From a virus: a DNA stretch of 64,000 nucleotides. The translations under genes were made by a program, and so were the position numbers. Of the stretch, positions 12,584 to 56,252 are shown piece by piece (within the stretch, counting starts at the first letter, position 1; each line of letters starts with the position of its first letter). The stretch spans positions 32,572 to 96,571 of IMG/VR virus record IMGVR_UViG_3300047174_000111. One strand, 5' to 3'. Below the pieces are notes generated by a model. The model was given only the letters and a program-made list of their open reading frames with translations. It was not told where the DNA came from and ran no database searches.

Positions 12584-12643
12584 GCGAAGGGGACCAAACA
12601 GAGGTAGCGCGGCGGGGTATCGACGCCCGAGGGATGCCCCGCC
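12584..12643 (+). promoter_or_regulatory. Late-gene leader: GGGGACCA motif plus hairpin before the portal gene
   Basis: GGGGACCAAA (around 12588-12598) is a variant of the repeated leader motif. It is followed by an inverted repeat GGCGGGG/CCCCGCC (12611-12617 and 12637-12643). The portal start lies 25 bases further on. The same order (motif, hairpin, start codon) is seen before several other late genes. Confidence 0.5.
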
Positions 12644-12667
12644 ACATGCTGCCGCAGGTCCGCGCCC

Positions 12668-15469
12668 ATGGCGCCTAAAATCACGCCGGGCGCAAGGGTG
12701 ACCGCGTTCACGCAGGAAATGATCTCGCGCGTCGCGGGCACGCTCAACTTTTTCAGCACCCAGGCCGCGCCCGGCGCCGCGACGGTGATCCGTCCGCCGA
12801 CGGCCGAGCCGTGGTTTGGTCCCGGTCGGCCGATGCTCCCGGCCGCGCCGGCCCAGGACGTCAAGGGGCGGGCGTTCGACTACCCGAACCAGTACAACAT
12901 CCAGATCCAGCCGCGCGCCTACGAGGGCATTTCCTTTGGGATGCTCAAGCGGCTCGCCGACGCCTCGGACATGGTCAGGCTCGCGATCGAAACCCGCAAG
13001 GACCAGTTCTCGGCGCTGGAGTGGTCGATCCAGCCCAAGATGGCGCAGGGCCAGGAGCTGCGATCAGCGCCGGACGCGCGCTGCGCCATGATCGAGGCCG
13101 CGCTCCAATATCCCGATCGGCGCCTGCCCTGGCACGCCTGGCAGCGCAAGATCATCGAGGAGCAGCTCGTCACCGACGCGGTGTCGATCTATGTGCGCCC
13201 CGACATGGGCGGCCGGCCATACAGCTTCGAGGTGCTGGACGGCGAGACGATCGCGCCGAAGCTCGATCTGTCGGGCCGCGAGCCTGAGGCGCCCGCGCCG
13301 GCCTACCAGCAGCGGCTCAAGGGCATGCCTGCGGTTGACTACAGCTCCGACGAGCTGATCTATGCGCCGCGCAATCCAAGAAACGGTCGCGTCTACGGAT
13401 GCTCTCCTGTAGAACAGATCATCATGACGGTAAATATTGCGATCCGTCGTGAAGTATCAAAGCTCCAATTCTACTGCTATTCTGATGATACAGAGGTGCT
13501 TACGAAGCGCGGATGGCTTCGCTTCGCCGAGACGACTTCCGACGACCAGTTCGCAACCCGTCAGATCAACACGGCCGTATTCGAGTGGCAAAAGCCTTAC
13601 GACACTTTCTACAAGCATTATACTGGAGAACTGATCCACTTCACCGGTCGATCGCTCGACCTGCTCGTGACGCCTCACCACAGGATGCTCGTGAACGTCT
13701 TTCCCGGAGCCATGGGCCGCAAGCCCAAGGGAGAGCACGTCATCACCGCAGAGGAGCTTGAGCGCTATGGCACGCCCAACGTCGGCCTACCGCAAACATC
13801 GGTGTGGGCAGGCGAAGAGCTGGGCGACCAAACGTTCACCGACGCCAACCCGCACTCCTGGGACATCACGCTCACCGGCGATCAGTATTGCGCCTTCATG
13901 GGCATGTATCTGGCCGAGGGCAATCTCAGGAAGCGATCGATTGCCATTTCCCAGCCGCCCGACACGCGCGGCGCGCACGAGAAGTACGGCGCGCTCCTGA
14001 AAGAAATCTTCGGCAGCGTCAGCTACTGCGGCCACCAGTTCGAGGTGGGACGCAAGGCGCTGGTCGAGCACCTTCGCCAGTTCGGCAAGGCTGGCGAAAA
14101 GTTCATCCCTGAGACGATCAAGGGCGCGACGCCACGTCAGCTGAAGATTTTCTTCGAGCACTATATGCTGGGTGACGGAACGGCGTTCGGCGATCGAGGC
14201 GGCATCCAGCAGGCGTTCACGGTGAGCCGGCGGCTCTCGGACGATCTGACTGAGATCGGTCAGAAACTGGGCTATGCGCCGGCGGTGTTCACCCGCAAAG
14301 CTGGGAAGGGAATGGTGGGAGACCGCGAGGTCAACCAGCGCGTCGGCTACATGATCACGTTTGGGCGCCGCAAAGCGACCAAGGGCTGGACGGCGAAACG
14401 CGTGAACTACGACGCTCCGGTCGCATGCGTCTGCGTCCCGAACAAGTTCCTGTACGTGCGCCGCAACGGCAAAGCGGTTTGGTCCGGGAACACGGAGGGC
14501 ACTGTTCCGGAAGCACTCGCGAGTGTCCCGAAGGAGTGGGGACCGGACAAGATCAAGGAATTCCAGGACATCTGGGACACGATGCTTGCCGATCAGGCCA
14601 CGAAGCGGCGACTGAAGTTCGTGCCGGGCGACATGACGTTCCAGCCGACCCGCGCGGATTCGTCGCTGCAGGACCCATACGACGAGTGGCTCGCCCGCGT
14701 CATCATGTTCGCGTTCAGCTTGCCGGCTTTGCCCTTTGTAAAGATGCAAAATCGCGCGACCGCTGATACCGCTTACGAAACGGCTTTGGAGGAAGGTCTC
14801 CAGCCCATGATGACCTGGTTCAAGACCAGCATCATGGACCGGATCATCCAGCGGAATTACGGGTTCACTGACGTGGAATTCGTCTGGAAGGACGTCGACG
14901 ACGTCGATCCGGGCGAGCAGCAGACCCGAGACCTGTCAATGATCCAGGTCGGGGTGAAAAGCATCGACGAGGTGCGCGCCGGCATGGGACTGCAGCCGAT
15001 CGGCATGACGCACGCCATCTGGGGCATCGGCCCGGCCGGCATCATGTTCGTCTCCGACCTCGTCCAGGCGCGGGACCAGGGGCTGCTGCAGATCCAGCCG
15101 CCGGCGCCGCCGCCCATGATGGCGGCCGGTGATCCGAACGACCCGATGGACGGAGGACCGGGCTTCGTGGACGGCGGTAGCCCGGCGCCGGGATCGAACG
15201 CGGCGCCGATGCTTGCGCTGCCCGCACCGCGCCGCGCGCTGCCCGCGCCTGGGCAGCCCGGCGTGGCGGACGCGCTGGCCGGAGTGCCGCCGAAGCTGCT
15301 CGCTGCCGTTGGTCTGGGGCCGGCCGGACCGGCGGGTCGCAGCGTCGATGTGACATCTGGCGAGGAGACGGCCAGCGACCCGCTGGCGCGGCATGCAGCC
15401 AACCCCACGGTGCTGCGCACACTGCGCGCCGCGGAACGCACCCAACAGAACAGGAGACCAAGCCGATGA
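12668..15469 (+). CDS. Portal protein precursor containing an intein
   Basis: 933 aa. Residues 1-269 and 609-933 together give a portal of about 594 aa, a normal size. The portal is the dodecameric ring through which DNA enters and leaves the capsid. Recognisable parts are the wing and stem region in the first 270 residues, SSDELIYAPRNP, then after the insertion TEGTVPEALASVPKEWGPDK and KLKFVPG-like RRLKFVPGDMTF. The C-terminus is a Pro/Ala-rich tail. Residues 270-608 are an in-frame intein with a homing-endonuclease domain. Joining residues 269 and 609 restores FYTEGTVPEAL, a conserved portal motif, so protein splicing is needed for a working portal. The next gene overlaps by ATGA. Confidence 0.9.
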   Translation: MAPKITPGARVTAFTQEMISRVAGTLNFFSTQAAPGAATVIRPPTAEPWFGPGRPMLPAAPAQDVKGRAFDYPNQYNIQIQPRAYEGISFGMLKRLADASDMVRLAIETRKDQFSALEWSIQPKMAQGQELRSAPDARCAMIEAALQYPDRRLPWHAWQRKIIEEQLVTDAVSIYVRPDMGGRPYSFEVLDGETIAPKLDLSGREPEAPAPAYQQRLKGMPAVDYSSDELIYAPRNPRNGRVYGCSPVEQIIMTVNIAIRREVSKLQFYCYSDDTEVLTKRGWLRFAETTSDDQFATRQINTAVFEWQKPYDTFYKHYTGELIHFTGRSLDLLVTPHHRMLVNVFPGAMGRKPKGEHVITAEELERYGTPNVGLPQTSVWAGEELGDQTFTDANPHSWDITLTGDQYCAFMGMYLAEGNLRKRSIAISQPPDTRGAHEKYGALLKEIFGSVSYCGHQFEVGRKALVEHLRQFGKAGEKFIPETIKGATPRQLKIFFEHYMLGDGTAFGDRGGIQQAFTVSRRLSDDLTEIGQKLGYAPAVFTRKAGKGMVGDREVNQRVGYMITFGRRKATKGWTAKRVNYDAPVACVCVPNKFLYVRRNGKAVWSGNTEGTVPEALASVPKEWGPDKIKEFQDIWDTMLADQATKRRLKFVPGDMTFQPTRADSSLQDPYDEWLARVIMFAFSLPALPFVKMQNRATADTAYETALEEGLQPMMTWFKTSIMDRIIQRNYGFTDVEFVWKDVDDVDPGEQQTRDLSMIQVGVKSIDEVRAGMGLQPIGMTHAIWGIGPAGIMFVSDLVQARDQGLLQIQPPAPPPMMAAGDPNDPMDGGPGFVDGGSPAPGSNAAPMLALPAPRRALPAPGQPGVADALAGVPPKLLAAVGLGPAGPAGRSVDVTSGEETASDPLARHAANPTVLRTLRAAERTQQNRRPSR
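13475..14491 (+). other. Intein with LAGLIDADG homing endonuclease, in the portal gene
   Basis: 339 residues. It starts at Cys1 in block A (CYSDDTEVLTKRGWLRF). A block-B-like LLVTPHHRML follows at about residue 66 of the intein, then two LAGLIDADG-type helices (CAFMGMYLAEGNL and IFFEHYMLGDGTAFG), then block F (PVACVCVPNKFLYVRRNG), and it ends ...WSGN before Thr. The splice chemistry residues Cys1, terminal Asn and Thr+1 are present. The penultimate residue is Gly, where His is usual, which some natural inteins tolerate. Both endonuclease acidic motifs look intact, so homing may still be active. Confidence 0.88.
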
Positions 15470-16356
15470 ACTACACGACCGAGTTGCCGCTGTGGGAACT
15501 TCACGGTCTGCCGTTCAAAACGGAGGAAGGGCAAACGATCGGGTTTGTCAGGTCCATCGATGCCGAGGCCGGCACGGTGACGGTGGAGCTGAACGACGAA
15601 GGCGGGGAGCTGGTCATCTCGGCGGGCGGCGTTCTCGACAACGGCCATTTCGACGGCATCAGGATGCGCGAGCCTCTGCGGCCCAGGGCGCTGGACAAAG
15701 GCGTCGGCGTCGACACGCTTGATGCGATCGACCAAGCGCGGGCGAAGTTTGGGATTCCGCCGCTCGCGCGCCTCCGGGCTTACAGTGTGGCGTCTGGCGG
15801 CACGATCGAACCCGGCGCTCCGGTCCACGAGCCATCTTTTGAGCAAACGCTGCCGCGGCGGCTTGTCGAGGATATCGTCGACCGCACCACGGACAAGGCG
15901 CCGGTAACGTTTGACACCGACATGGCGCCGATCACTGACATGATACGCCGTCCGACGATCGGCGTGAGCTGGTCGGAACCGCCGGCCGCGGTCAAGCGCG
16001 CGATCGCCACTCTGAAGGGCGACCTGCGCATGCCGCGACCCGGCGCGCTGCGGCCGGTGCCGAAAATGCCGGACGAACCTGTCCAGGCGCTGGTGCTGAT
16101 GAGCCGCGACAACCCGCATGGCTGGAAGCTGGAGGAGCTGCTCGACCAGCTGGAGGTCGAACTCAAGGCGAAGAACGAGAAGCTGGTCGGCGACGACAGC
16201 GACACGGCGATCCGGGTGCTGGCGAACAATCGCCGCATCATCACCCTGCTGCACCAATGCGCGCTGATGCAGCGCGACAGCATCGATGCGCTCGATCGGC
16301 TCGCGCCGGACCAGGGGCCGCTGGGCAGACCCAGGATCGGCGACGGTGCAACGTGA
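15466..16356 (+). CDS. Hypothetical head-region protein, 296 aa
   Basis: ATGA overlap with the portal gene. The N-terminal 60 residues look like a small beta domain (IGFVRSIDAEAGTVTVELND), followed by a mixed region and a C-terminal helical part (KLEELLDQLEVELKAKNEKL, then RVLANNRRIITLLHQCALMQ). Position after the portal suggests a minor head or assembly role. I do not recognise a family. Confidence 0.55.
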   Translation: MNYTTELPLWELHGLPFKTEEGQTIGFVRSIDAEAGTVTVELNDEGGELVISAGGVLDNGHFDGIRMREPLRPRALDKGVGVDTLDAIDQARAKFGIPPLARLRAYSVASGGTIEPGAPVHEPSFEQTLPRRLVEDIVDRTTDKAPVTFDTDMAPITDMIRRPTIGVSWSEPPAAVKRAIATLKGDLRMPRPGALRPVPKMPDEPVQALVLMSRDNPHGWKLEELLDQLEVELKAKNEKLVGDDSDTAIRVLANNRRIITLLHQCALMQRDSIDALDRLAPDQGPLGRPRIGDGAT

Positions 16357-16357
16357 A

Positions 16358-18280: not shown

Positions 18281-18286
18281 TCGCCG

Positions 18287-20524: not shown

Positions 20525-20854
20525 ATGATGATCGAGCGAATCGGCGACACGGACGTGGTGCACGGGTTGGATGGAACCATCTGTCCCGCCCCAACCCCAA
20601 GGCGCTTCATCAGGTCAGTGCTCGAACGTCTCGATGCTGACATGGAGGCCGAGTATCGGCACCTCACCGAGCGCGGAATGCCAGCGGGCGAAGCGATGGC
20701 GGAAGTACAGCTGCGGTTCGCGTGGTCACGCCAGCGTCTCGCCAGTGGTCTGGCCGACGAGATGGCACGATTGCCTGTTCCGCCGCTTGTTCTGACCCGG
20801 GAGCAGGCAGAGGAGTGGGGACTGCCAATCAAGCCGAAAGGAGACGCTACATGA
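20525..20854 (+). CDS. Hypothetical protein, 109 aa
   Basis: ATG ATG at the start; the second (20528) is equally possible. Mostly helical: TPRRFIRSVLERLDADMEAE, then AMAEVQLRFAWSRQRLASGL. It is followed by a coupled gene whose start overlaps its stop. Nothing in the sequence points to a function. Confidence 0.45.
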   Translation: MMIERIGDTDVVHGLDGTICPAPTPRRFIRSVLERLDADMEAEYRHLTERGMPAGEAMAEVQLRFAWSRQRLASGLADEMARLPVPPLVLTREQAEEWGLPIKPKGDAT

Positions 20855-21303
20855 ACGACGCCGAGCGCCGCTTCTGCCACGATCTGGCCAAGGCCGTGAC
20901 CAGCTCGGGCACCTACACCTACCAGGGCGAGGCGACGGCCGGCGGGATCGGCTCGATCTTCCGCGGCTCCTCGCCGTCGCCCTGGGGGCTGCGCGCCGCG
21001 TCCCGCCTCAGTGGGCTGCGATCCAAGCATGTCGCGGGCTCGGCGCAGTCCCAGTCTCTGCTGGTCGGCCAGGCGGTGCGGGCGATCCAGCGCGGCAAAC
21101 GCACCTCGGGTCACGCGATCCGCCAGCTCGCCGCCAGCACGGCGCGCCGCGCGCCCGTGGTGTCCACGGCGGCGCCCGGGCAGGCGCTGAAGGGCTCTGG
21201 GGGGTCAGGCTATACCGGGGCGCCGGCGACGCAGCTGGGCCAGCAGCAGACCCAGGGGAACTACATCAAGCCGCCGACGCCGCCCCAGCCTCCAACGCCG
21301 TAG
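20851..21303 (+). CDS. Hypothetical head-region protein, 150 aa
   Basis: AAAGGAG lies 7 bases before the ATG at 20851, which overlaps the previous stop. The protein is basic, glycine/serine-rich and ends in a proline-rich tail (KPPTPPQPPTP). It has the look of a minor virion component. It is the last rightward gene before the leftward early block and converges with it. Confidence 0.5.
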   Translation: MNDAERRFCHDLAKAVTSSGTYTYQGEATAGGIGSIFRGSSPSPWGLRAASRLSGLRSKHVAGSAQSQSLLVGQAVRAIQRGKRTSGHAIRQLAASTARRAPVVSTAAPGQALKGSGGSGYTGAPATQLGQQQTQGNYIKPPTPPQPPTP

Positions 21304-21311: not shown

Positions 21312-21815
21312 CTACGCGGCTCCAGGGCCGGGCGGTATGGGCATCCAGTGCGTCAGGTCGTGCACACGGAAGGTGCTATCGGCCTCGGCACAACGCTGCC
21401 GAAAATGTCCGCAGTCGTCATCATCTGACCACTGCACCCAGGCAAGCCGCGTCTCGCCGTCCCAGGCGTCGAACCACGAGCCGTCCTTGGGCGCGGTCGC
21501 GATCGGCCGCCAGCACCGCGCACCATACCGATCGAGGACCATTTCCAGCGCCTCCTCGGGCCGCTGGTCAACTGGAACCAGGACGTCACGGAACGTTGGC
21601 GGCTCGTTGCCATGACACCATGTCTTCCGGACGTACGTCTCCGTCGTGATCGAAGCTTTGACGTAGCACCAAGCCGGTTGGCCGGTCACGAGCGCAGCTG
21701 TCTCATACGTCGTGAAATAATGCGTGACTAAGCGGCGATCACGACGGATCGGCAGCGTCTCGCCGTCTTTGTGACCGCCGATGCACAGCAGGTGTTCAAC
21801 CTCGTCAGTGGCCAT
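21312..21815 (-). CDS. Hypothetical early-type protein, 167 aa
   Basis: Start at ATG 21815, which overlaps the end of the upstream leftward gene. The middle has CWRPIATAPKDGSWFDAWDG, a pattern common in small phage proteins of unknown function (RPIATAPKDG family), followed by an acidic stretch and HDLTHWMPIPPGP at the end. The N-terminal half (CIGGHKDGETLPIRRDRRLV) looks like a separate small domain. It is the last gene of an eight-gene leftward block. Confidence 0.55.
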   Translation of the reverse strand: MATDEVEHLLCIGGHKDGETLPIRRDRRLVTHYFTTYETAALVTGQPAWCYVKASITTETYVRKTWCHGNEPPTFRDVLVPVDQRPEEALEMVLDRYGARCWRPIATAPKDGSWFDAWDGETRLAWVQWSDDDDCGHFRQRCAEADSTFRVHDLTHWMPIPPGPGAA

Positions 21816-22065
21816 CGATCGCCATCCTGATCTGTCTGTAATGCTCGGGCGCGCAGTAGATGACACCGTTTTCCCGATCATAGATCGGGTCCGCCGGCTT
21901 TGTCTTGGGGACGGCCATCACGATCCAAGGGTCGATCGGCAGCCAGCGAGACAGCCACAGGATAAGCGGGTGCCCCGGGATGCGCTTCTCGGTGAAGCCG
22001 TCCAGCACGCGCGGCAGCAGATCGGTGACGCGGACCTGGATGCCGCCGAAGGGCTCGCGCGTCAT
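21805..22065 (-). CDS. Hypothetical protein, 86 aa
   Basis: Start at ATG 22065, overlapping the upstream stop. The protein contains LPRVLDGFTEKRIPGHPLIL and PIYDRENGVIYCAPEHYRQI. It has no membrane segment. The N-terminal PFGGIQVRVTDLLPRVL region appears folded. It is part of a coupled series of leftward genes that read like phage early accessory genes. Confidence 0.5.
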   Translation of the reverse strand: MTREPFGGIQVRVTDLLPRVLDGFTEKRIPGHPLILWLSRWLPIDPWIVMAVPKTKPADPIYDRENGVIYCAPEHYRQIRMAIDGH

Positions 22066-22460
22066 GTTGCGACCTTCGCCGGCGGCTTCACGTCCTGCTT
22101 CAGCTCGCCGCACAACCCGATCTTCGGGACGTGGTGGGCGCAGATTCCGTCCTGTCCTGGCTCATACACGACGCAGGGCGAATACGGCCGGCGGTCATAG
22201 ATCCCGCATCGCCCGTCGGGCTGCAGCTCGGTGCAACGGAAGTTCCAGACCCATCCTTGTCGGGGGTCGTGTATCATGCCGATCGGAACAAACGGTAGGC
22301 CGTAGGCAATCCGGCCACCGAGCACAGCCTCTTCGTAGGGATAGTCGTCAAGCAGCGTGGTCACGCTTTCAGCGGTGGGCCAATCGAGAACGTTCAAAGT
22401 GCTGAGCGTGAAACCGCGGCAGCACCGGCCAGGATCGCGGCATGTGTCGCACGCGCTCAT
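22062..22460 (-). CDS. Cysteine-cluster (YkgJ-like) protein, 132 aa
   Basis: The N-terminal CDTCRDPGRCC, later FRCTELQPDGRCGIYDRRPY and SPCVVYEPGQDGICAHH, give the spacing of the YkgJ / CxxCxxCC zinc- or iron-chelating family. Start ATG 22460 overlaps the stop of the upstream gene (ATGA). Phage members are known as single genes but without an agreed function. It could bind an iron-sulfur cluster or zinc. Confidence 0.65.
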   Translation of the reverse strand: MSACDTCRDPGRCCRGFTLSTLNVLDWPTAESVTTLLDDYPYEEAVLGGRIAYGLPFVPIGMIHDPRQGWVWNFRCTELQPDGRCGIYDRRPYSPCVVYEPGQDGICAHHVPKIGLCGELKQDVKPPAKVAT

Positions 22461-22711
22461 GTGCCGATCTCGCAAAGCTTGCGCTTTTCGATCTCCGCCT
22501 TTTCCAATTCCTCAAGGGCATGCCGAACCTCGACAGCGACTTGGGCGCAAAATCTCAAGTCGCGGACCCCTGTGGATGACGTTGGCGCGAAATGTTTTTG
22601 CAACACCGTGAATACGGTAGCCTCTACCCTCATCGCGTGACGGTCGCTGGCCGAGAATTCCCTTTTACCCCATCCGGCGGGGCGCAGGGTGTTGGCGGTA
22701 AGATCGATCAT
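22457..22711 (-). CDS. Hypothetical helical protein, 84 aa
   Basis: I place the start at ATG 22711 because it overlaps the stop of the upstream gene (ATGA), as do its neighbours. The sequence is helical (VEATVFTVLQKHFAPT, then VAVEVRHALEELEKAEIEKR), with one Cys near the middle and one near the end. No family is recognised. Confidence 0.5.
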   Translation of the reverse strand: MIDLTANTLRPAGWGKREFSASDRHAMRVEATVFTVLQKHFAPTSSTGVRDLRFCAQVAVEVRHALEELEKAEIEKRKLCEIGT

Positions 22712-22896
22712 GGCTTGGCTCGCATCACGAACTCGCCACATGCAGGCGTCGTGGCGGAAACATCTGGCCGCGTGACGTAAGGCGTGTAGAGGACTGGTTG
22801 TTGATTATCACTAGGCCACAGCACCATTTGCGGCGGGTACCTGTAGCACTGGCCAGCAAGTTTATATTTGCATTCGCCGCATGTATTATTGCTCAT
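22708..22896 (-). CDS. Small cysteine-motif protein, 62 aa
   Basis: A GGAGAAG ribosome binding site is visible upstream. CGECKYKLAGQCYRYPP at the N-terminus and ACGEF at the C-terminus give four cysteines, a pattern recurrent in small phage proteins that probably hold zinc or an iron-sulfur centre. It is the first of a coupled run of leftward genes ending at 21312. Confidence 0.6.
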   Translation of the reverse strand: MSNNTCGECKYKLAGQCYRYPPQMVLWPSDNQQPVLYTPYVTRPDVSATTPACGEFVMRAKP

Positions 22897-22986
22897 GTCG
22901 ATTTCTTCTCCAGGGTGCGCTCGAAAGGCCGAAGCATGTCAGCATACAGCTCCAGACGCGCTGCTGGAACGGGCGTTCATCAGGCC

Positions 22987-23481
22987 TCACTCGCATCCTT
23001 TCCCAACGGTTTCGCCGTTCGGCCCAGCCGTGAAATCGCGCCAGTGCCGCCAGCCTTGAGGGCAGTGAAACCCCCAGGCGCGGATCTTCGGGCCGGTGAC
23101 GAACAGCGTGACGACCGGCTCGTAACCAGACCTAGCGTCGGCGTCAGGGCCGCCCAGCAAGAGCTGAATGCGATGCGCGGCCCACGGCGACCGGAACACG
23201 AGCGCTCCCTCGTCCCGGAAATGAATCATGTCCGGCGTGTGCTCGAAGTACGAGCCCTTCAGGATCCATGAAAGGCACGCCCAGGGATGGTCGTGCAAAG
23301 CCCTGTCGTCGTCGGACCTGAGGAATTTGTGCAGATAGATGTTGCACAACCACCTGCACCTGAAGACATGCCAGCGCTCCAGATACGGACTACCGTCATG
23401 ACCGATCACGACGTCCGGGGGACGCGCATCCAGGACTTGCAGGGCGCGTCGCGTCAGCCGGTCCCGCAGAAACGCCCTCAT
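22987..23481 (-). CDS. Cupin-like phage protein, 164 aa
   Basis: Conserved pattern of a widespread phage family of unknown role: PYLERWHVFRC, NIYLHKFLRSDDDRALHDHP, then WILKGSYFE, RSPWAAHRI and LFVTGPKIRAWGFHCPQGW. The HDHP and later HRI histidines fit a cupin-type metal-binding barrel. A GGAGGG ribosome binding site is retained between its ATG and the left hairpin of the TnpB element that lies just upstream, so the insertion did not break the gene. Confidence 0.65.
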   Translation of the reverse strand: MRAFLRDRLTRRALQVLDARPPDVVIGHDGSPYLERWHVFRCRWLCNIYLHKFLRSDDDRALHDHPWACLSWILKGSYFEHTPDMIHFRDEGALVFRSPWAAHRIQLLLGGPDADARSGYEPVVTLFVTGPKIRAWGFHCPQGWRHWRDFTAGPNGETVGKGCE

Positions 23482-23588
23482 TCGTCCCTCCGCGAGAAAC
23501 CCCGGCCTTCAGGCCGGGGAGGGATAGCGGTTCGCGCGACAGCGCGAAGACCTTGACGGCGCATCGAATGCCTTCCATACTTGACGGC

Positions 23589-24665
23589 ATGAAGCTCGTA
23601 GCTGCCGTGAAGATGATGCCAACGACCGAGCAGGCCGCGTGCCTGACGGCGACGCTGGCGCGCTGCAACGAGGCGTGCTCGTGGCTGGCCGGTATCGGTT
23701 TCGACACGAAGACATTCCGGCAATACGACCTGCACAAAGCTACCTATGCGGAACTGCGCACCCGCTTCGGATTGACCGCGCAAGCCGCCGTGCGATCCAT
23801 CTCCAAGGTCGCGGACGCCTTCAAGGTCAACCGCGATGTCGCGCCTGTCTTTCGAGCCGATGCGGCACAGCCCTACGACGACCGCATTATCCGTTTCGTT
23901 AAGGATGGCAGCGCGGTCAGCCTGTGGACGCTGGAAGGCCGCATGGTGGTTCCCATCGTGATGGGCGAACACCAGAAGCGGCTGATGGTATTCCGCAAGG
24001 GCGAAGTTGACCTGTGCCTCGTGCGCGGGAAATGGATGCTCGCCGCGACATGCGACATTCCCGAGACCGACGAGTTCAAGGCCGAAGACTGGCTGGGCGT
24101 CGATCTTGGCATCGTCTCGCTGGCCGTGGATAGCGACGGCGCGACCTACAGCGGGGCCGAAGTGGAGCGTGTCCGCCGCCGCCAGCAAAAGCGCCGGAGC
24201 GGGTTGCAGAAGTGCGGCACCAAGGCCGCCAAGCGGCGGCTCCGCAAGCTGGCGGGAAAACAAGCGAGGTTTCAGAAGCACACCAACCACTGCATCGCTA
24301 AGGCTGTCGTGATGGACGCTGAACGCACTGGACGCGGGATTGCCCTCGAAGACCTCAAGGGTATCCGTAGCCGGGTTACGGCTCGCAGCAACCAACGCGC
24401 ACGATTGGGGAATTGGGGTTTCGCACAGCTTGGCGCATTCGTCTCCTACAAGGCGAAGCGCGCTGGCGTCCCCGTGGTCTTTGTCGATCCGCGCAATACA
24501 TCCCGGCAGTGCCGGGAATGTGGATGCATCGACAAGAAGAACCGAACCAATCAAGCCAACTTCTCCTGTGTTTCGTGTGGGCACCAAGCGCCCGCCGATC
24601 TCAACGCGGCCCGGAATATTCGGGCCAAGGCTTCTGTAACCAAGCCCTGTGTTCTGGCCGCCTAA
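23589..24665 (+). CDS. tnpB: TnpB RNA-guided nuclease
   Basis: 358 aa from ATG 23589 (MKLVAAVKMMPT). TnpB is the OmegaRNA-guided DNA nuclease ancestral to Cas12. The RuvC residues appear intact: Asp in WLGVDLGIVSL (about 172), Glu in IALEDLKGI (about 254), Asp in ADLNAARNI (about 337). The zinc ribbon CRECG/CVSCG lies between the last two. A basic helix RRRQQKRRSGLQ precedes them. The length is slightly short of 370-400 aa relatives. No tnpA accompanies it. Its DNA has the same base composition as the phage, which suggests long residence or a donor of similar composition. Confidence 0.9.
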   Translation: MKLVAAVKMMPTTEQAACLTATLARCNEACSWLAGIGFDTKTFRQYDLHKATYAELRTRFGLTAQAAVRSISKVADAFKVNRDVAPVFRADAAQPYDDRIIRFVKDGSAVSLWTLEGRMVVPIVMGEHQKRLMVFRKGEVDLCLVRGKWMLAATCDIPETDEFKAEDWLGVDLGIVSLAVDSDGATYSGAEVERVRRRQQKRRSGLQKCGTKAAKRRLRKLAGKQARFQKHTNHCIAKAVVMDAERTGRGIALEDLKGIRSRVTARSNQRARLGNWGFAQLGAFVSYKAKRAGVPVVFVDPRNTSRQCRECGCIDKKNRTNQANFSCVSCGHQAPADLNAARNIRAKASVTKPCVLAA

Positions 24666-24702
24666 TAAGCAGCACGGAAAAGCCCCTCCCTTCAGGGAGG
24701 GG
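24560..24702 (+). ncRNA. Probable OmegaRNA region at the right end
   Basis: In characterised TnpB elements the guide RNA scaffold overlaps the 3' end of tnpB and runs to the right end of the element, with the guide taken from flanking DNA just beyond it. Here that region holds the end of tnpB and the GC-rich hairpin 24683-24702. The guide would then begin in the sequence after about 24703, the 3' end of the neighbouring leftward gene. Limits are inferred. Confidence 0.45.
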
Positions 24703-24707
24703 ATCGG

Positions 24708-24917
24708 TTACTGTCGCGCTGCCTTCTTGAGGCGGGCAATGACACCCTTCCGGATCCCGATTTTCTGATATGACGCAGGAATGCGCGTCACGGCGCCGGT
24801 CTCGGCGTGGCGGAGCTGCATGTGGCCCTGGCTGTTTCGCCCGGTGGGCCTCCAGCCGTGCTCTCGTGCGATGGCGAGCACCTCGCGCTCGTCCCGGTTC
24901 GCGCAGCTTCCGCTCAT
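24708..24917 (-). CDS. Small HicA-like protein, 69 aa
   Basis: Start ATG 24917 overlaps the stop of the upstream gene (ATGA), which I prefer over ATG 24947. The core REHGWRPTGRNSQGHMQLRH with TRIPASYQKIGIRKGVIARL following resembles the HicA / YcfA double-stranded-RNA-binding-like fold (Gly-His in the middle, basic C-terminal helix). No HicB antitoxin partner is adjacent, so a toxin role is doubtful. Its stop codon lies 5 bases from the TnpB element right hairpin. Confidence 0.55.
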   Translation of the reverse strand: MSGSCANRDEREVLAIAREHGWRPTGRNSQGHMQLRHAETGAVTRIPASYQKIGIRKGVIARLKKAARQ

Positions 24918-25219
24918 GCGTCGCGGAGCCTTTCGGGGAGCCGCCATCGAGGTGGTCCCTTCGAGACTAGGTTCACCGCGTGGTACCCGCAGGGATGAGG
25001 CGTCAGCGTGATCTGACCTCCGCACCACTCGCACTGGACGTGCTGGCGCTCGGCGGTCGGATCGAACGGCGTGTTCCCGCAGCAGAAGCCGCACATCATG
25101 GTTGCGATCTTGTCGCGTTCATACTGCTTCTGCGCCGCGCCATATCGCTCCAGATAGGCCATGGTGCGTTGCATGACGGAGGCGCGCCTCGGCGGCGGGG
25201 TAAACGGCGGGTCGATCAC
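24914..25219 (-). CDS. Small zinc-finger-like protein, 101 aa
   Basis: GTG start at 25219 with GAGG upstream. After a helical N-terminal region the sequence MMCGFCCGNTPFDP and QCEWCGGQITLTPHPCGYH give paired CxxC elements, a probable zinc ribbon. First gene of the leftward block. Its promoter should lie in 25220-25400, near the ACAT-N4-ATGT palindrome. Confidence 0.55.
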   Translation of the reverse strand: MIDPPFTPPPRRASVMQRTMAYLERYGAAQKQYERDKIATMMCGFCCGNTPFDPTAERQHVQCEWCGGQITLTPHPCGYHAVNLVSKGPPRWRLPERLRDA

Positions 25220-25398: not shown

Positions 25399-25437
25399 GG
25401 CCGGCCCGGTTATGTGACACCCGGGCCGGCCTTTTTT
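25399..25437 (+). terminator. Strong intrinsic terminator, rightward
   Basis: Perfect 11-bp inverted repeat (GGCCGGCCCGG at 25399-25409, CCGGGCCGGCC at 25421-25431) followed by TTTTTT (25432-25437). It is a textbook Rho-independent terminator for rightward RNA. It sits after the leftward block and just ahead of the gene at 25505, so it either stops readthrough from the upstream head operon or acts as an attenuator in the leader of the next operon. Confidence 0.85.
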
Positions 25438-25452
25438 GTTGCGCCGCTCGAT

Positions 25453-25495
25453 GCGGGGACCAAGACGCGGTTGAGCCGCTCCAAGACCCTGGAGC
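25453..25495 (+). promoter_or_regulatory. Late-gene leader motif plus hairpin before 25505
   Basis: GCGGGGACCAAGACGCGG (25453-25470) is a good copy of the repeated leader motif, 45-50 bases before the start codon. A hairpin GCTCCA/TGGAGC (about 25478-25495) follows, then the ATG at 25505. Confidence 0.55.
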
Positions 25496-34747: not shown

Positions 34748-34815
34748 TTGACAGGGGGACTGAACCACCGGCCGTCCCCCTGTCGTGGACCGAAAACACA
34801 TCGGGACCACATCGC
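34748..34815 (+). promoter_or_regulatory. Hairpin and leader motif before the capsid gene
   Basis: A perfect 11-bp inverted repeat (34750-34760 and 34774-34784) follows the scaffold-like gene and could stop or stabilise RNA ends. Then comes CATCGGGACCACATCG (about 34798-34815), a variant of the repeated leader motif, about 85 bases before the capsid GTG. There is no T-tract after the hairpin. Confidence 0.45.
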
Positions 34816-34893
34816 GCCGACCACCTGACCGCCGGTTGCGCAGCCGGCCATGGCCCCAAACCGCCGCTGGGCCGCGGCTGCGCTGACGACACG

Positions 34894-36711: not shown

Positions 36712-37293
36712 GTGGCTGCGCCGCTCGACTTCTTCTCGCTGACCGACGCCAAGACCTATCTCGGCATCGCTCTGACCGACACGTCTCAGGACGCGCTGCT
36801 GGAGCTGATCCTGCCGTCCGCGACCCAGGCCGTGGTCGACCTGCTCTGCTGGGACCCGAACAGCCAGGAGGTCAACGAGCGCTACAACGGCACCGGCGCA
36901 CCGGCGATCGTGGTCAACCGGAAGTGCATCTCCGCGGTCGCATCCGTCGCGATCGAGAACCCGATCACCGGCACGCAGAACGTGCTGGACCCGTCGCACT
37001 ATTTTTTCGACGGGCAGAAGATCCTGTCGCGGCGCGGTCCTTACCCGCGCGGCCAGAAGAACATCATCGTCAGCTACACGGCCGGCCTGGTACCGATCCC
37101 GGCCAGCATCGTCCTGGCCGCCAAGATGACCCTCAAGGCGATGTGGAGCGGCAAGGACTTCGAGCAAAACGCGACAGGATCGGAAGTGCCCGACGTCGAA
37201 AGCCTGACGTTCTGGCCGACCGGGCCGGGCGCAGTGCCGCCGCAGGCCCGCAGCCTGCTCATGAAATACCGCATCGAGATGCTGGTCAGCTGA
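36712..37293 (+). CDS. Head-tail connector (HK97 gp6-like), 193 aa
   Basis: GTG start. The opening FFSLTDAKTYLGIALTDTSQ, then DALLELILPSATQAVVDLLC and later IIVSYTAGLVPIPASIVLAA with KMTLKAMWSG are typical of the gp6 family of head-tail adaptors that form a ring under the portal. The length is normal. It is the last head gene before the spike cluster. Confidence 0.75.
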   Translation: MAAPLDFFSLTDAKTYLGIALTDTSQDALLELILPSATQAVVDLLCWDPNSQEVNERYNGTGAPAIVVNRKCISAVASVAIENPITGTQNVLDPSHYFFDGQKILSRRGPYPRGQKNIIVSYTAGLVPIPASIVLAAKMTLKAMWSGKDFEQNATGSEVPDVESLTFWPTGPGAVPPQARSLLMKYRIEMLVS

Positions 37294-37347
37294 CGCGGGG
37301 ACCACGCCGGTTGCTCCAAGGCGTGAGATAATCTCGGGAGACCGGCG
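37292..37347 (+). promoter_or_regulatory. Late-gene leader motif before 37348
   Basis: GACGCGGGGACCACGCC (37292-37308) begins within the stop codon of the connector gene and lies about 50 bases before the next start. An inverted repeat CGCCGGT/ACCGGCG brackets the rest of the leader. This is one of the two best copies of the motif. Confidence 0.6.
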
Positions 37348-38996: not shown

Positions 38997-39050
38997 GCGG
39001 CGGGGACCAAGCGCCGCGCCATCAGCAGCCGAGACAGTCAGGGGCGCGCC
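38997..39050 (+). promoter_or_regulatory. Late-gene leader motif before 39051
   Basis: GCGGCGGGGACCAAGCGCC (about 38997-39014), a close copy of the repeated motif, 50 bases before the start at 39051. The next 30 bases contain complementary GGCGCGCC/GCGCC segments. Confidence 0.55.
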
Positions 39051-43378: not shown

Positions 43379-44074
43379 TTGGACGCCTGGCTCGGCTATG
43401 GCGCGGTTGGCGAGGCGGCGGGGTCGGACGCCGACCGTCCGCCTGACGCACAGCCGACAGCGGCCACCGTCCCCGCGACCGTCGCGACCACGGGCGTGCT
43501 GGGGCGCGTCGCGGCCGCCACGCGGCGCATGGGCACGCTGGTGATCCTGCGCAATCCCACGTCCGGCTCGGGGCCGGTTCAGAGCCCATACCCACCCACG
43601 CTGGATGGCCCGGTGCTGGCCCAGGCCTACCCGGGTGCTGCCACGCTCATCGCGATCAATGCCGACGAGGCGCTGGGCCAGATCATCGCGGGCGACGAGA
43701 TCACCATCGCCGGCGTGCCTTACGTGGTGATCGACGGCGGATCGAGCAGGCCGTTCAGCGCCGCCACGCCCGGCTTCGACGGCATCCGCATCTCGCCCCC
43801 GCTCGCCGCGCCCGCGGCCGCCGGCACACCGCTCAGCTTCGTCTGGGAGAGCGATATCTACGTCTACGCGCGCATCACGTCGTTCCCCGGCACGCTGGTC
43901 GATGGGTCGCTCGTGCTGATGGAGGACCTGCAGGTCACGATCCCGGCGCAGGGAATCTCCAGGCCGGCGAACAACGCCAAGCTGATCATCGGCTCTGACA
44001 TCCGGTCGGTCGTGACCAGCCTGCCGATCTACGCCAACGGCCAGATCGTGCGCTGGCAGCTCCAGGCCCGCTGA
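43379..44074 (+). CDS. Hypothetical virion protein, 231 aa
   Basis: TTG start one base after the preceding stop, with GGGG upstream. After a Pro/Ala/Thr-rich N-terminal linker (about 20-50), residues about 50-231 look beta-rich (GDEITIAGVPYVVIDGGSSR, then YARITSFPGTLVDGSLVLME). Its position fits a neck or tail-completion component. No family is recognised. Confidence 0.5.
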   Translation: MDAWLGYGAVGEAAGSDADRPPDAQPTAATVPATVATTGVLGRVAAATRRMGTLVILRNPTSGSGPVQSPYPPTLDGPVLAQAYPGAATLIAINADEALGQIIAGDEITIAGVPYVVIDGGSSRPFSAATPGFDGIRISPPLAAPAAAGTPLSFVWESDIYVYARITSFPGTLVDGSLVLMEDLQVTIPAQGISRPANNAKLIIGSDIRSVVTSLPIYANGQIVRWQLQAR

Positions 44075-44126
44075 CGCGGGGACCACGCGAGAGGCTGATC
44101 CGACCCGCTGATGCGGGGGATTGAGC
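44073..44126 (+). promoter_or_regulatory. Late-gene leader motif before 44127
   Basis: GACGCGGGGACCACGCG (44073-44089) starts within the stop codon of the upstream gene, as at 37292, and lies about 50 bases before the GTG at 44127. Confidence 0.6.
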
Positions 44127-45162: not shown

Positions 45163-45765
45163 ATGGCCGGCCGGGTCTCCCAGCTCATCATCGCGTCGAT
45201 CAACGGCGCGGCGTCGCAAGTCCGGTCGTCCCAGATGGTCATCTCGGCCGTGGCGAGCGCGAACAGCAAGATGCGCGTCTCCCAGGTGGTGATCGAGACC
45301 GTTTCGGGCGCCCTGTCGCTGACCCGCGCGTCCCAATCGACCATCGACGTGCTGATGTTCAACTGGTTCGCGCACGCCTCGCAGCTCGTGATCGAGATTC
45401 TGCTCTTCAACACCATCGCGAAAACCCCGACGTTCAACCCGGGCCAGATCCCCTACGTCGAGCTGACCGATACGCCACGCATGATCTCCAACCAGTTCGG
45501 GGACGGCTATGCCCAGGACAGTCCCGACGGCCTGAACGTCTGGACCGGCAAGGTCAACCTGACCTGGTCGCCCGTCCCGGTGGACACGGCCCTGGCGATC
45601 CGCAACTTCCTCCGTGCCCAGGTCGGCGCGCCGTTCTTCTACACGCTGCCGCGGGAGATCGCGCCGCGGCTGTGGGTCTGCACCTCGATGACGCGCAGCT
45701 ACCCGCATCCCGCCCAGGACAGCTTCGTGGCCACGTTCGAGGAGCGGTTCACCGAGACGACGTAG
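45163..45765 (+). CDS. Tail protein with a minor-tail-M-like C-terminus, 200 aa
   Basis: Residues 1-90 contain repeated short units VSQLIIASING, SSQMVISAV, VSQVVIETVSG and ASQLVIEILLF, a repeat seen in siphophage tail proteins next to lectin domains. Residues about 90-200 (FGDGYAQDSPDGLNVW, FFYTLPREIAPRLWV and SYPHPAQDSFVATFEERF) match the lambda gpM-like minor tail domain and are a paralogue of the 55855 gene. This is therefore a fusion or duplicated tail module placed upstream of the tail tube. Confidence 0.65.
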   Translation: MAGRVSQLIIASINGAASQVRSSQMVISAVASANSKMRVSQVVIETVSGALSLTRASQSTIDVLMFNWFAHASQLVIEILLFNTIAKTPTFNPGQIPYVELTDTPRMISNQFGDGYAQDSPDGLNVWTGKVNLTWSPVPVDTALAIRNFLRAQVGAPFFYTLPREIAPRLWVCTSMTRSYPHPAQDSFVATFEERFTETT

Positions 45766-45781
45766 CCGCGGCGACCACGCC
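45765..45781 (+). promoter_or_regulatory. Late-gene leader motif before 45799
   Basis: GCCGCGGCGACCACGCC, beginning at the stop codon of the previous gene and 30 bases before the next ATG. The same GCGGCGACCA variant occurs at 56199. Confidence 0.5.
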
Positions 45782-46209: not shown

Positions 46210-46619
46210 GCCTGCTCAGCATCAAGACGGCGCTCGACACCCGCATGCAGGCCTTCGCCGCGCCTGGCATGGGCCAGATCGCGTGGCAGGATCAGGTCTA
46301 CGAACCCGCGCAGGGTCAGCCCTACATCGCAGTTCGCGTCGCGGCCTACGCCCGCCGGCCGCTGGGCGTCGGCGCGGACTGCGTCTTCGAGGAGTCCGGC
46401 ACGTACCTGATCACGGTGAACCGCCCCACCGCCGAGGGAACGGCTCGGGCCGCGTGGCTCGCCGAGCAGATCGTGGCGTGGTTCGCGCGCGGCATCACGC
46501 TGCCCACGACCGACGGCGAGCAGCTGATCATGATGAACGCGTCCGAGCAGCCCACCCAGGCCGCGGGCAACTGGATCACGCTGCCCATCGTGGTGAGCTG
46601 GCTCGCCTCGATCCCGTAG
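46206..46619 (+). CDS. Tail terminator-like protein, 137 aa
   Basis: Starts in the stop of the gp10-like gene; the longer open frame before it is a shadow. The sequence IKTALDTRMQAFAAPG, AVRVAAYARRPLGVG, then TYLITVNRPTAEGTARAAWL and ITLPTTDGEQLIMMNASEQP follows the gpU/DUF4128-like tail-terminator pattern. Its place between gp10 and the tail tube gene supports the role of capping the tail tube. Confidence 0.65.
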   Translation: MSLLSIKTALDTRMQAFAAPGMGQIAWQDQVYEPAQGQPYIAVRVAAYARRPLGVGADCVFEESGTYLITVNRPTAEGTARAAWLAEQIVAWFARGITLPTTDGEQLIMMNASEQPTQAAGNWITLPIVVSWLASIP

Positions 46620-46674
46620 GACCCGCAACCAAGAACCGGCACGCGTCCGCCAGACCTGAGCGGAGCAGACGGAC

Positions 46675-49426: not shown

Positions 49427-49468
49427 GTGATAACATCAACGTCATGAGAAATGCAACTGGTGATAACA
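49427..49468. promoter_or_regulatory. Direct repeats GTGATAACA around the RHH gene start
   Basis: GTGATAACA occurs at 49427-49435 and again at 49460-49468, 33 bases apart (about three helical turns) and on either side of the start codon at 49444. Ribbon-helix-helix regulators bind short direct repeats, so these may be its own operator. A GC-rich imperfect hairpin (about 49386-49420) lies next to them in the divergent intergenic region. Confidence 0.4.
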
Positions 49469-49817: not shown

Positions 49818-49880
49818 AGCACTGCAGCAATCTTCACGGGACGTGCACGCGGATCGGTGGCCAGCCAAAGATGAGGTTTC

Positions 49881-50360: not shown

Positions 50361-50375
50361 GCGGCCACTACGTTG

Positions 50376-50432
50376 CCGCGGGGACCAGCACACCGGCCAC
50401 CGGCCTCTGTCTGCCACCAGCCAGAGGGCCTC
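50376..50432 (+). promoter_or_regulatory. Late-gene leader motif before the tail chaperone gene
   Basis: CCGCGGGGACCAGCA (50376-50390), about 50 bases before the ATG at 50433, followed by an imperfect hairpin GGCCTCTG/CAGAGGGCC. The motif therefore marks the return of the structural operon after the accessory cluster. Confidence 0.55.
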
Positions 50433-51196: not shown

Positions 51197-51199
51197 TCC

Positions 51200-54100: not shown

Positions 54101-55855
54101 CAGGACGCCGTTCGGCTCAATCTTCCCGGTGGCGCGTCGATCGACAACACCTACCTCGTCCACCAGCAGGGCGCGACGGGTGCGCGGGCGCTGCTCAGCG
54201 CCGATCCGAATGCGAACGTGGTCGATGCACTCTCCTCGGGTGCGAACCTGAGCCGAGCGTCCGCGAGCGCTCATATCTCTCAGAACAGCGGCAACCCCAA
54301 TGGCTCGGTGGGCGATTTCCTCGCGGTTCAGCATGGCCTGAACCAGCAGGCCGAAACCACCATCGGCACGGCGACCGACGATCAACTCCTGCAGTATTGG
54401 CAGATCTACAACCAGCCCGGCGGCCCGAGCGACCCGCGCATTACCGCGCTGCCACAGGCGCAGCAGGATCGTCTTGCCCAGACGGCGCGCGTCCAGCAGA
54501 CCGGCACGACGCTCTCCGGCGTGAACGCACTGCAGACCGCGCAGCAGCAGCAGGCCGCGAGCATGAACACGGCAATGGTCGCGGCGCAGGGACCGGCCGC
54601 CGTGGACGCCGCCCAGCGGCAGAACCAAGTCACTTCGGCCGTGCAGAGCGGCAGCATCGCGGCGTCTCAGGCGCCTCAGCTGTCGTCGTCGCTGCTGCTC
54701 GGCGACGCGACGAAGCAGCTCCAGGACCTCAACAGCCAGACCTTCGCACTGAAACAGAACGCGGACGCCGCGCAGGGGCTGGCGAAGGCCTACGCAGATG
54801 GGCCGGCGGCGGTGCAGGCGTTTCAAGACTCGCTCAAGACCGCACCCATCGAGGCGCAAATCGAAAAGCTAAAGGGCGCATCGGACCAGACATCTGCTAC
54901 GATGGATGCGACCGAGAAATTGACGGATGCGCTCGCCAAGTACAAAACCACCCAGGACGCGGCCAACACGGCGGCAGCGAACGCGAAGACCGCTCAGGCG
55001 ACCTCTGGCCTGAACGATCAGAATTTCATGACGCAGCAATCGCTGAACGTCCCGTTCTATGCGACGGACAATCAGAAGCTGGAGGCTTCGGCGGAGGCCC
55101 AGAAGGCTCTGTACGCCAAGAACAATCCCAACGTCAGCCCCGACACGCTGACAGGTTACAACTCGGCCATCGACCAGCAGACCAATCTCAAGGAGCAGGT
55201 CAGCGATGCCAACACACTTCAGAACGCCTACAAATCCGCGTCCAACGCGCTGACTCAGGGCTTCGAGAACGCCATCGTCTCAGGTGCCAACATGCACACG
55301 ACGCTCGCGACGCTGACGCAGGACCTCGAGAAGATCGCGATCAACGCCGCGATCGAGAAGCCGCTGGAAAACGCCCTGTCCGGCGCTTTCGGAGGCGCGG
55401 GCGGCTTTTTCAGCAATCTGTTCGGCTCCGGCGCGGGCAGCGCGGCCGGCGCGGCGGTGGCATCCGCGGCGGGCAACATCTTCTTCCAGGGGCGCCAGCT
55501 GCGCGCCTTCGCCGGCGGCGGCATGATCGACCGGCCCACGCTGTTCCCGATGGCCGCGGGCGGCACTGGACTGGCCGGCGAGGCGGGCAATGGCGAGGCC
55601 CTTATGCCGGTGCGCCGACTTCCGAACGGCGATCTCGGGATCCAGTCGAGCGGATCCTCGGGCCACACCGTCATGGTCACTGCGCCGGTCACGATCCAGG
55701 GAGGCGCCAGCACGGGGGGCCAGAAACAGGGTCTCGACAAGACGACGGCCCAGATGTTTCAGACCCAGATGGAGGGCATCATCTCCACCGGGGTGAAGAA
55801 CGTGCTCCGCAATGAGATGCGGCAGGGCGGCATGCTGTCCGGCGTGTCCCGCTGA
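51200..55855 (+). CDS. Tape measure protein with a transglycosylase-like domain, 1551 aa
   Basis: It sets tail length (at roughly 0.15 nm per residue, a tail near 230 nm). The N-terminal 130 residues are coiled (TQNLQQMQQAAGQVDQKTGQ). Residues about 905-1010 (ADPTTALVVAQRESSLGTDP, YTGVFQLQNGTPGS, then YLVHQQGATGARALL) look like a lytic transglycosylase domain with the catalytic Glu in QRESS. The C-terminus has AFAGGGMIDRPTLFPMAAGG and LAGEAGNGEALMPVRRLPNG, the usual gpH-type end. Long Gln/Ala-rich helices fill the rest. Confidence 0.9.
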   Translation: MDIASLGFSIDSSDAINATQNLQQMQQAAGQVDQKTGQMTTSLRAHQIALRDWRTDAQAFNGVLIQTNNALDDLMQRLDKTRAAIDGTAQSFTAFSTVQRQVEALGNSFDQTSTSLESYYRKANELGLSTTQTVQSLDRITEALTNQTAAGKAARQVITDLGVNLQGLTANNANDVLAQFAQKLGGYADTTQKLRSAQVVLGPNVDPDTLAQLSQPNYIPYDTRRQRQLQEQFDEQSADRTRNAAILNRQSDLTNQQYNDLSSTFNVESKRSAGNLFGFTGLSPDMIAQITKELGPNSDVAKYGPTSIVGQVALQQYLAAHPDSVAAYSARTIGGNVSYLRQNSYLGRVESYLQPTDSQLRSAAAQPTPGVFSGLGAFLPPASPQLAANRAEIAARQTRDTQTGDGSLLSWIEQQGLALGRNVQADLNLYTPLPAIQDTRPQIPDEQYLNDSNVAQTLRGYGFTGASDRLNLNQRAKELQKPGVQDMFAGVYGAQGGDLRYNAVLSDLQGRARDALNPNQGAQDQADRAAFLQNTPLAQRGTASSYLNFLQGAGIPTRGFTGPNGSPQQFLSSLDPRAAAGDPNSQGGTSGVVNGVDPATRDAFLKYQSTQDATQINASNEALQQQLDLQTKLQGAVTQGSAAMEDITTRTSAYNAALAAGKDVKVAAVDAENALEAAQAKRATTSATLIANLTRENDLNAAANQAQQDAGVDPVARATAGINSQITTTTDNAVRSGQVTQQGLTAYQAQLQRQQGVQAEGTLNNAVAGSSQDLATAKALEAAAADRASVQAKIASDTQIEAQYAKEVAQARVAANQDNGESLAYVQKQIEALKQLKSQIDAVNATKLVIQGNTDLGNQANLNIALAGMSPEQRRLAQQALPDLRTGGFVGAPGYSTQIQQQSLAQGADPTTALVVAQRESSLGTDPHMNQGAYTGVFQLQNGTPGSGTDSIDNQIKLGVARVVQDMQDAVRLNLPGGASIDNTYLVHQQGATGARALLSADPNANVVDALSSGANLSRASASAHISQNSGNPNGSVGDFLAVQHGLNQQAETTIGTATDDQLLQYWQIYNQPGGPSDPRITALPQAQQDRLAQTARVQQTGTTLSGVNALQTAQQQQAASMNTAMVAAQGPAAVDAAQRQNQVTSAVQSGSIAASQAPQLSSSLLLGDATKQLQDLNSQTFALKQNADAAQGLAKAYADGPAAVQAFQDSLKTAPIEAQIEKLKGASDQTSATMDATEKLTDALAKYKTTQDAANTAAANAKTAQATSGLNDQNFMTQQSLNVPFYATDNQKLEASAEAQKALYAKNNPNVSPDTLTGYNSAIDQQTNLKEQVSDANTLQNAYKSASNALTQGFENAIVSGANMHTTLATLTQDLEKIAINAAIEKPLENALSGAFGGAGGFFSNLFGSGAGSAAGAAVASAAGNIFFQGRQLRAFAGGGMIDRPTLFPMAAGGTGLAGEAGNGEALMPVRRLPNGDLGIQSSGSSGHTVMVTAPVTIQGGASTGGQKQGLDKTTAQMFQTQMEGIISTGVKNVLRNEMRQGGMLSGVSR

Positions 55856-56199
55856 TGGACACATTCACCCCACCCATCCCGCCCCAGGTCAACAACACGC
55901 AGCTTGAGGAAACGCCGCGCGCCCGAACCAACGACTTCGGGGACGGCTACCAGACCGACCTGCCCGACGGCCTGAACAACGACCCGGGCAAAGTGACGCT
56001 GCAATGGTCGACGCTGAACTGGCAGGACGCCACGACGATCCATCAGTTCATGCGCAACCATGTCGCGCAGCCCTTCTGGTACACCCTGCCGCGCGAGACG
56101 ACGCCCCGTGCCTGGATCACCGGTCCGGTCCAGCGCAGCTATCCCTGGCCGCTGCAGGATTCGATCACGGTTTCGCTGATCGAGCGCTTCGTGCTGTAG
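55855..56199 (+). CDS. Minor tail protein M-like, 114 aa
   Basis: Starts inside the stop of the tape measure gene. The pattern FGDGYQTDLPDGLNNDPG, ATTIHQFMRNHVAQPFWYTL and RAWITGPVQRSYPWPLQDSI belongs to the gpM family at the tail tip. It is clearly related to the C-terminal half of the 45163 gene product, so this phage carries two copies of the domain. Confidence 0.8.
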   Translation: MDTFTPPIPPQVNNTQLEETPRARTNDFGDGYQTDLPDGLNNDPGKVTLQWSTLNWQDATTIHQFMRNHVAQPFWYTLPRETTPRAWITGPVQRSYPWPLQDSITVSLIERFVL

Positions 56200-56252
56200 C
56201 CGCGGCGACCAACGCGACGGCCTGCAAGGCTTCCGACCTTTGGAAGCCGCCA
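56199..56252 (+). promoter_or_regulatory. Late-gene leader motif and hairpin before 56257
   Basis: GCCGCGGCGACCAACGCG (56199-56216) begins at the stop codon of the M-like gene, about 50 bases before the next start. It is followed by a 7-bp hairpin GGCTTCC/GGAAGCC. Confidence 0.55.

What the first reader, a model, noticed from the sequence alone, without database searches (positions are those of the whole stretch)
12584..56216. A repeated 15-17 bp motif marks the leaders of late genes
The sequence GACGCGGGGACCACGCC or close variants is seen at 12584, 25453, 34798, 37292, 38997, 44073, 45765, 50376 and 56199. In most cases it starts at or just after a stop codon and lies about 50 bases before the next start codon; a hairpin often follows it. 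A degenerate copy may exist at 46620. It is seen only where a real intergenic gap exists in the structural operon, not at ATGA-coupled genes. It could be a late promoter or activator site, an RNA-processing signal, a translation leader, or a boundary sequence used in module exchange, comparable in concept to start-associated sequences of some mycobacteriophages.
Basis: seen in the sequence. Interest (0 to 1): 0.78.

Follow-up and report, generated by a model that had tools for sequence, protein, structure and literature searches.

The report
Repeated leader motif of phage late genes
In this bacterial virus nearly every block of structural genes begins with the same short tag followed by a foldable stretch about 45 bases before the start codon, and in the other half of the genome the same place is taken by hammerhead-ribozyme-like RNAs, so the virus seems to give its genes individual RNA leaders.

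Summary
GMnGCGGSGACCA occurs 7 times without mismatch in the window, all on the + strand in leaders of late genes; its core GCGGSGACCA occurs nowhere else in the 96.6 kb record. The copy at 12584 has 2 mismatches; 34798 and 46620 are weak. In 7 of 8 strong copies the motif ends 41-50 nt before a start codon (the portal copy fits only via an unconserved upstream ATG; 71 nt to its own start). The leader between motif and start folds better than chance (pooled z -4.6; coupled genes +0.3). A relative (portal 60-66% identical) carries the motif at the portal leader and at its other sampled late gap. No conserved base lies outside the 13-mer, and no -10 excess or AT-rich stretch is found: against an ordinary promoter. 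The left arm uses the same layout with 22 type II hammerhead-like leaders (covariation supported, SD inside or beside the catalytic core); late leaders do not match that model or Rfam. I favour an RNA-level leader element (0.5) over an activator site (0.3; a winged-helix/GcrA-like regulator gene lies just upstream of the first copy). New variant of the start-associated repeat kind; the hammerhead leader series is the more surprising part.

The parts
12584..12596 (+). late leader motif GCGAAGGGGACCA (2 mismatches), leader of the portal gene 12668
   Evidence: the relative L189/L324 has GACGCGGGGACCA in the leader of the orthologous portal gene
25450..25462 (+). late leader motif GATGCGGGGACCA, leader of gene 25505
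   Evidence: follows a terminator-like stem and T-run at 25399-25437 with 12 bases between
34797..34809 (+). weak copy (CGGGACCA), gap before the capsid gene 34894
   Evidence: a hairpin close to the start codon lies at the same place in the distant relative G012
37292..37304 (+). late leader motif GACGCGGGGACCA, overlaps the stop codon of the upstream gene; leader of gene 37348
   Evidence: leader fold z -2.4
38997..39009 (+). late leader motif GCGGCGGGGACCA, leader of gene 39051
44073..44085 (+). late leader motif GACGCGGGGACCA, overlaps the stop codon; leader of gene 44127
   Evidence: leader fold z -2.3
45765..45777 (+). late leader motif GCCGCGGCGACCA, overlaps the stop codon; leader of gene 45799
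46619..46631 (+). degenerate copy GGACCCGCAACCA at the stop codon; leader of gene 46675
50375..50387 (+). late leader motif GCCGCGGGGACCA, leader of gene 50433
56199..56211 (+). late leader motif GCCGCGGCGACCA, overlaps the stop codon; leader of gene 56257
   Evidence: leader fold z -2.6
11312..12058 (+). regulator gene, predicted winged helix plus GcrA-like C-terminal motif; candidate late activator (rival explanation)
   Evidence: Pfam GcrA 21.2 bits, below cut-off 26.9; winged-helix layout in residues 1-80 of the folded part; many winged-helix proteins among the matches, none significant; 54% identical in the relative
4896..4947 (-). type II hammerhead-like leader of gene 4497-4886 (core C3U and G8A)
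4430..4495 (-). type II hammerhead-like element with intact core CUGACGA, upstream of gene 3967-4356
1..51 (-). type II hammerhead-like leader, cut by the window edge (whole in L004:16263-16322)

Best explanation
The motif is the 5' end of a roughly 55-nt leader RNA placed in front of late gene blocks of a tailed phage. The leader is built as stop codon, GMnGCGGSGACCA, a spacer that often folds into a hairpin, a Shine-Dalgarno-like stretch (often inside or beside the hairpin), and the start codon. Shown: the motif, its restriction to leaders, its orientation, the fixed spacing, the pooled folding excess, and its presence in one relative. Inferred: that it works on RNA, by giving each block of the polycistronic late mRNA its own structured 5' end that is bound, trimmed or folded so that translation of that block is set independently. 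This would be the late counterpart of the hammerhead-like leaders that fill the same slot on the left arm.
For: 7 of 7 exact core matches in leaders, none in coding or on the other strand. Motif end to start codon 41-45 nt in six of eight strong copies. Spacer folding: pooled z -4.6 over 13 leaders against +0.3 for 24 ATGA-coupled genes. CGC within 7 nt after the motif in 7 of 10 against 0.20 background (p 0.0009), which lets GCG pair with CGC around a GNGACCA loop. No conserved column outside the 13-mer, no -10 enrichment, 61-75% G+C throughout. The relative L189/L324 keeps the motif at the orthologous portal leader and in its other sampled late gap, with otherwise unrelated leader sequence. 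The left arm of the same phage uses RNA leaders in the same slot.
Against: No transcript data. Only about half of the single leaders fold significantly, and the hairpins differ in form, so there is no common secondary structure that could be tested by covariation. Several real gaps lack the motif. A DNA-binding regulator gene next to the first copy and a terminator just upstream of the 25450 copy are what a promoter reading would predict. Effectively only one relative (L189 and L324 share the same leader sequence) supports conservation.
Confidence: 0.5

Rival explanations
1. The motif is a DNA site for a late transcription activator, possibly the phage's own winged-helix/GcrA-like protein, which recruits the host RNA polymerase to a promoter in front of each late block; the hairpin is part of the resulting 5' UTR.
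For: Repeated motifs ahead of phage gene blocks are often promoters (general knowledge). The regulator gene 11312-12058 lies just upstream of the first copy, is conserved in the relative, and has a predicted winged helix and a GcrA-like C-terminus. A terminator-like structure ends 12 bases before the 25450 copy, so gene 25505 needs either antitermination or its own promoter.
Against: No conserved base outside 13 nt, no -10 excess, no AT-rich stretch, G+C 61-75% all round. Tight spacing to the start codon rather than to any promoter element. No phage RNA polymerase or sigma factor was seen among the proteins tested, though not all were tested.
Confidence: 0.3
2. The motif is a boundary sequence for module exchange by recombination.
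For: It sits at the ends of blocks of coupled genes, often on the stop codon.
Against: One orientation only, fixed spacing to the start codon, folded spacer; at 25450 it sits with the downstream gene although the material upstream is an unrelated module with opposite-strand genes. 13 nt is short for homologous exchange.
Confidence: 0.08
3. The late leaders are a degenerate or different self-cleaving ribozyme.
For: Same slot and layout as the hammerhead-like leaders of the left arm.
Against: No match to any ribozyme family of Rfam at a relaxed threshold and no match to the model built from the left-arm leaders; no common structure.
Confidence: 0.04

Closest known systems
Start-associated sequences (SAS/ESAS) of cluster K mycobacteriophages (PMC3203893)
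   Same: Short asymmetric repeat (13 bp there, 13 here), mostly one orientation, upstream of gene starts, kept at genes of different families, about half of them with an inverted repeat, function unknown.
   Different: Other sequence (GGGATAGGAGCCC there); SAS lies immediately upstream of the start codon, this motif 41-50 nt upstream; ESAS inverted repeats have a consensus and lie upstream of the SAS, here the hairpins have no common sequence and lie downstream of the motif.
Clustered type II hammerhead ribozymes of prophages and HHphage of haloviruses HF1/HF2 (PMC3088659)
   Same: For the left-arm leaders: type II architecture, short stem II, many copies between genes, close to start codons. 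Cutting phage transcripts into gene-length mRNAs was proposed there.
   Different: The late leaders of this finding are not hammerheads. In the left arm there are 22 copies, nearly one per gene, with the Shine-Dalgarno sequence inside or beside the core, and the catalytic core has drifted in about half of them and in the copies of the two relatives that could be parsed.
Promoters of T7-like phages ahead of late genes (general knowledge)
   Same: Repeated motif in gaps ahead of late genes, followed by a 5' UTR hairpin.
   Different: No 17-20 bp recognition sequence, no AT-rich melting region, no phage RNA polymerase found among the proteins tested.

Membership tests
SAS/ESAS of cluster K mycobacteriophages | sequence GGGATAGGAGCCC with at most two deviations, immediately upstream of the start codon | tested here: not met
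   consensus is GMnGCGGSGACCA, 41-50 nt upstream of the start
SAS/ESAS of cluster K mycobacteriophages | asymmetric, one orientation, tied to gene starts | tested here: met
SAS/ESAS of cluster K mycobacteriophages | 17-bp inverted repeats with a consensus next to the repeat | tested here: not met
   hairpins in about half of the leaders, without common sequence
sigma-70 promoter | -10 and -35 hexamers at fixed spacing | tested here: not met
   no conserved column outside the motif; best -10 score equals genome background; none of the promoter-like sites lies at a motif copy
sigma-70 promoter | transcript start nearby | not testable with these tools
   no RNA data
type II hammerhead ribozyme (late leaders) | GAAA-stem III-GUH-stem I-CUGANGA core | tested here: not met
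type II hammerhead ribozyme (left-arm leaders) | stems I and III closed, stem II open, with pairs kept by covariation | tested here: met
   94% of cells paired against 75% shuffled; covariation score 0.467 against 0.128
type II hammerhead ribozyme (left-arm leaders) | intact catalytic core CUGANGA | tested here: inconclusive
   intact in 10 of 22 copies of this phage, in none of 4 in L189 and none of the parsed copies in G012; one copy is above the Rfam cut-off
type II hammerhead ribozyme (left-arm leaders) | self-cleavage | not testable with these tools
   needs in vitro transcription

The most novel reading that the evidence does not exclude
This phage lineage assigns leader RNAs to its genes in two families: hammerhead-derived leaders on the left arm, in which the ribosome-binding site is part of the ribozyme core, and an undescribed GCGGSGACCA leader on late genes that does the same job (separating and independently translating cistrons of a long transcript) through an unknown processing factor or RNA-binding protein.
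Probability: 0.2. Interest if true: 0.85.

Novelty: new variant of a known kind. Interest (0 to 1): 0.58.

Why it matters
Phages must set very different protein levels from long shared transcripts. A standard leader in front of late blocks, together with ribozyme-type leaders on the other arm, would be a compact, portable way to do so. It makes a concrete test possible: whether an RNA element rather than a promoter defines late cistrons here. The hammerhead series also offers many natural variants of one ribozyme, in which the trade-off between the catalytic core and the ribosome-binding site can be read directly.

Tried and rejected
Hammerhead or other known RNA family for the late leaders: no match. 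Common secondary structure of the late leaders: single folds differ in form, so no covariance model was built. CsrA/Rsm-type GGA site: considered from the sequence; two strong copies have GCGACCA and lack GGA. Sigma-70 promoter. More relatives: capsid relatives up to 53% identical, as far as their leaders were printed, show no such motif; tail protein queries found no relatives; a motif scan of the viral collection found no other phage with the motif in a leader of this design, apart from L189/L324. G012 (terminase 45%) has only weak cognates (GACGGGGCGACCA in the capsid gap, TAG-TTTTGGCGACCAAG after the head-morphogenesis gene), which I judge not beyond chance. Upstream reading frames before the portal and capsid genes: the portal one has no counterpart in the relative. 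The motif read at one or two mismatches: near background.

Full report
Where it is. The window is bases 32572-96571 of a 96,571-base virus record. Its proteins are those of a tailed phage with terminase, portal, head morphogenesis, tail and tape-measure genes. Genes were called with a simple codon-model script, so single start codons may be off.

Observation. The named copies are real. Eight copies aligned with two from a relative give GMnGCGGSGACCA, with no strongly conserved column upstream of the motif or downstream of it. The 10-base core GCGGSGACCA occurs 7 times in the window against 1.2 expected and 7 times in the record, always on the + strand in the leader of a late gene and never in coding sequence. 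GGGGACCA, the commonest 8-mer in late gaps, occurs 6 times in the record, each time in a late leader. With one mismatch only background matches appear. Copies 34798 and 46620 and one ahead of a lysis-type gene at the start of the record (L003:314) are weak.

Anatomy. Motif end to start codon: 42, 43, 41, 41, 45, 45 nt; 21 at 45765; at 12584 71 nt to the portal start, or 50 to an upstream ATG that has no counterpart in the relative. In four strong copies the stop codon of the previous gene lies in the motif. The spacer folds better than dinucleotide shuffles in about half of the cases, pooled z -4.6 over 13 leaders (two of them from the relative), against +0.3 for the same stretch before 24 coupled genes. 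CGC follows the motif within 7 nt in 7 of 10 cases (p 0.0009), which would let GCG and CGC close a small loop with GNGACCA; the stem was not fixed beforehand, so this is weak evidence.

Relatives. L189 and L324 (same leader sequence; terminase 68-72%, portal 60-66% identical to the window) carry GACGCGGGGACCAAGC ahead of the portal gene, as in the window, and L324 has GCGGCGGGGACCAAAC in the gap after the orthologue of 20851-21303. The flanking leader sequences are unrelated to those of the window. More distant relatives do not clearly have it. A scan of 2.9 million viral contigs found no other leader of this design. The element is therefore real but restricted to a narrow lineage as far as seen, and the independent support is one relative.

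The other arm. Mostly outside the window, on the minus strand, nearly every gene of the left arm is preceded by a leader of one design: C-GAAAC-stem III-GUC-stem I-CUGAnGAG-start. Rfam calls one of them a type II hammerhead above its cut-off and scores nine more between 17 and 35 bits. Twenty aligned copies show 94% paired cells against 75% shuffled and a covariation score of 0.467 against 0.128. A model from these finds 22 copies in this phage (three of them in the window, one cut by its edge), 4 in L189 and 13 in G012 at E below 0.01, and none in late leaders. GAA-A...U-C is kept in the copies of this phage; the core CUGAnGA is intact in 10 of 22, with single changes (G8A, C3A, C3U, U4C, U4A) or C3U with G8A in the rest, and C3 is lost in L189 and in the copies of G012 that could be parsed. 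The Shine-Dalgarno sequence lies in or beside the core. Perreault et al. (PMC3088659) described clustered hammerheads in prophages and a hammerhead 13 nt upstream of a halovirus gene. I found no report of a leader series of this length, in a library of open papers only.

Mechanism. The fixed spacing to the start codon, the folded spacer, the lack of any promoter element and the RNA leaders of the left arm in the same slot favour an RNA-level leader element (0.5). An activator site remains possible (0.3): a winged-helix/GcrA-like regulator gene lies just upstream of the first copy, and a terminator-like structure precedes the 25450 copy. GcrA-like proteins are known from phiCbK-like phages (PMC3556154). 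No step of the function has been shown. The decisive data are transcript 5' ends.

Limits. Gene starts are predicted; the fold statistics depend on them and on which leaders were included (the weak copies were). Control shuffles keep dinucleotides but not codon structure. Conservation rests on one lineage. Not every real late gap has the motif.

Noticed in passing
L004 minus strand 6199-16322 (G000 22.5-32.6 kb); window 1-51, 4430-4495 and 4896-4947 minus: 22 type II hammerhead-like leaders, nearly one per gene, with the Shine-Dalgarno sequence in or beside the catalytic core; core intact in 10.
   Followed up: yes
L409 minus strand 9337-16104 (G012, 95.5 kb relative): 13 leaders of the same design in a distant relative with the C3 position changed in the parsed copies, so the leader persists after the catalytic core has drifted.
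   Followed up: partly
L086 (50 kb contig) and L093 (52 kb contig): Other phage contigs with series of type II hammerheads at or above the Rfam cut-off (9 in the first record).
   Followed up: partly
window 12668-15469, residues about 265-622: Portal protein interrupted by an intein-like insert that is absent from the portal of the relative L189.
   Followed up: partly
window 11312-12058: Regulator gene with a predicted winged helix and a GcrA-like C-terminal cysteine/histidine motif, conserved in the relative.
   Followed up: partly
window 21312-25174: Inserted module with opposite-strand genes and a TnpB-like gene, followed on the + strand by a strong terminator-like stem at 25399-25437.
   Followed up: no
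L407-L409 (G012): Many copies of the palindrome AACACATTWWAATGTGTT in gaps, operator-like.
   Followed up: no
L003 2066-4598: Cluster of ten tRNA matches, one scored as selenocysteine tRNA just over its cut-off.
   Followed up: no
window 34842-34887 and L408 8777-8822: Long hairpin just before the capsid gene start in both phages, with the outer pairs seemingly differing in a compensating way; two sequences only.
   Followed up: partly
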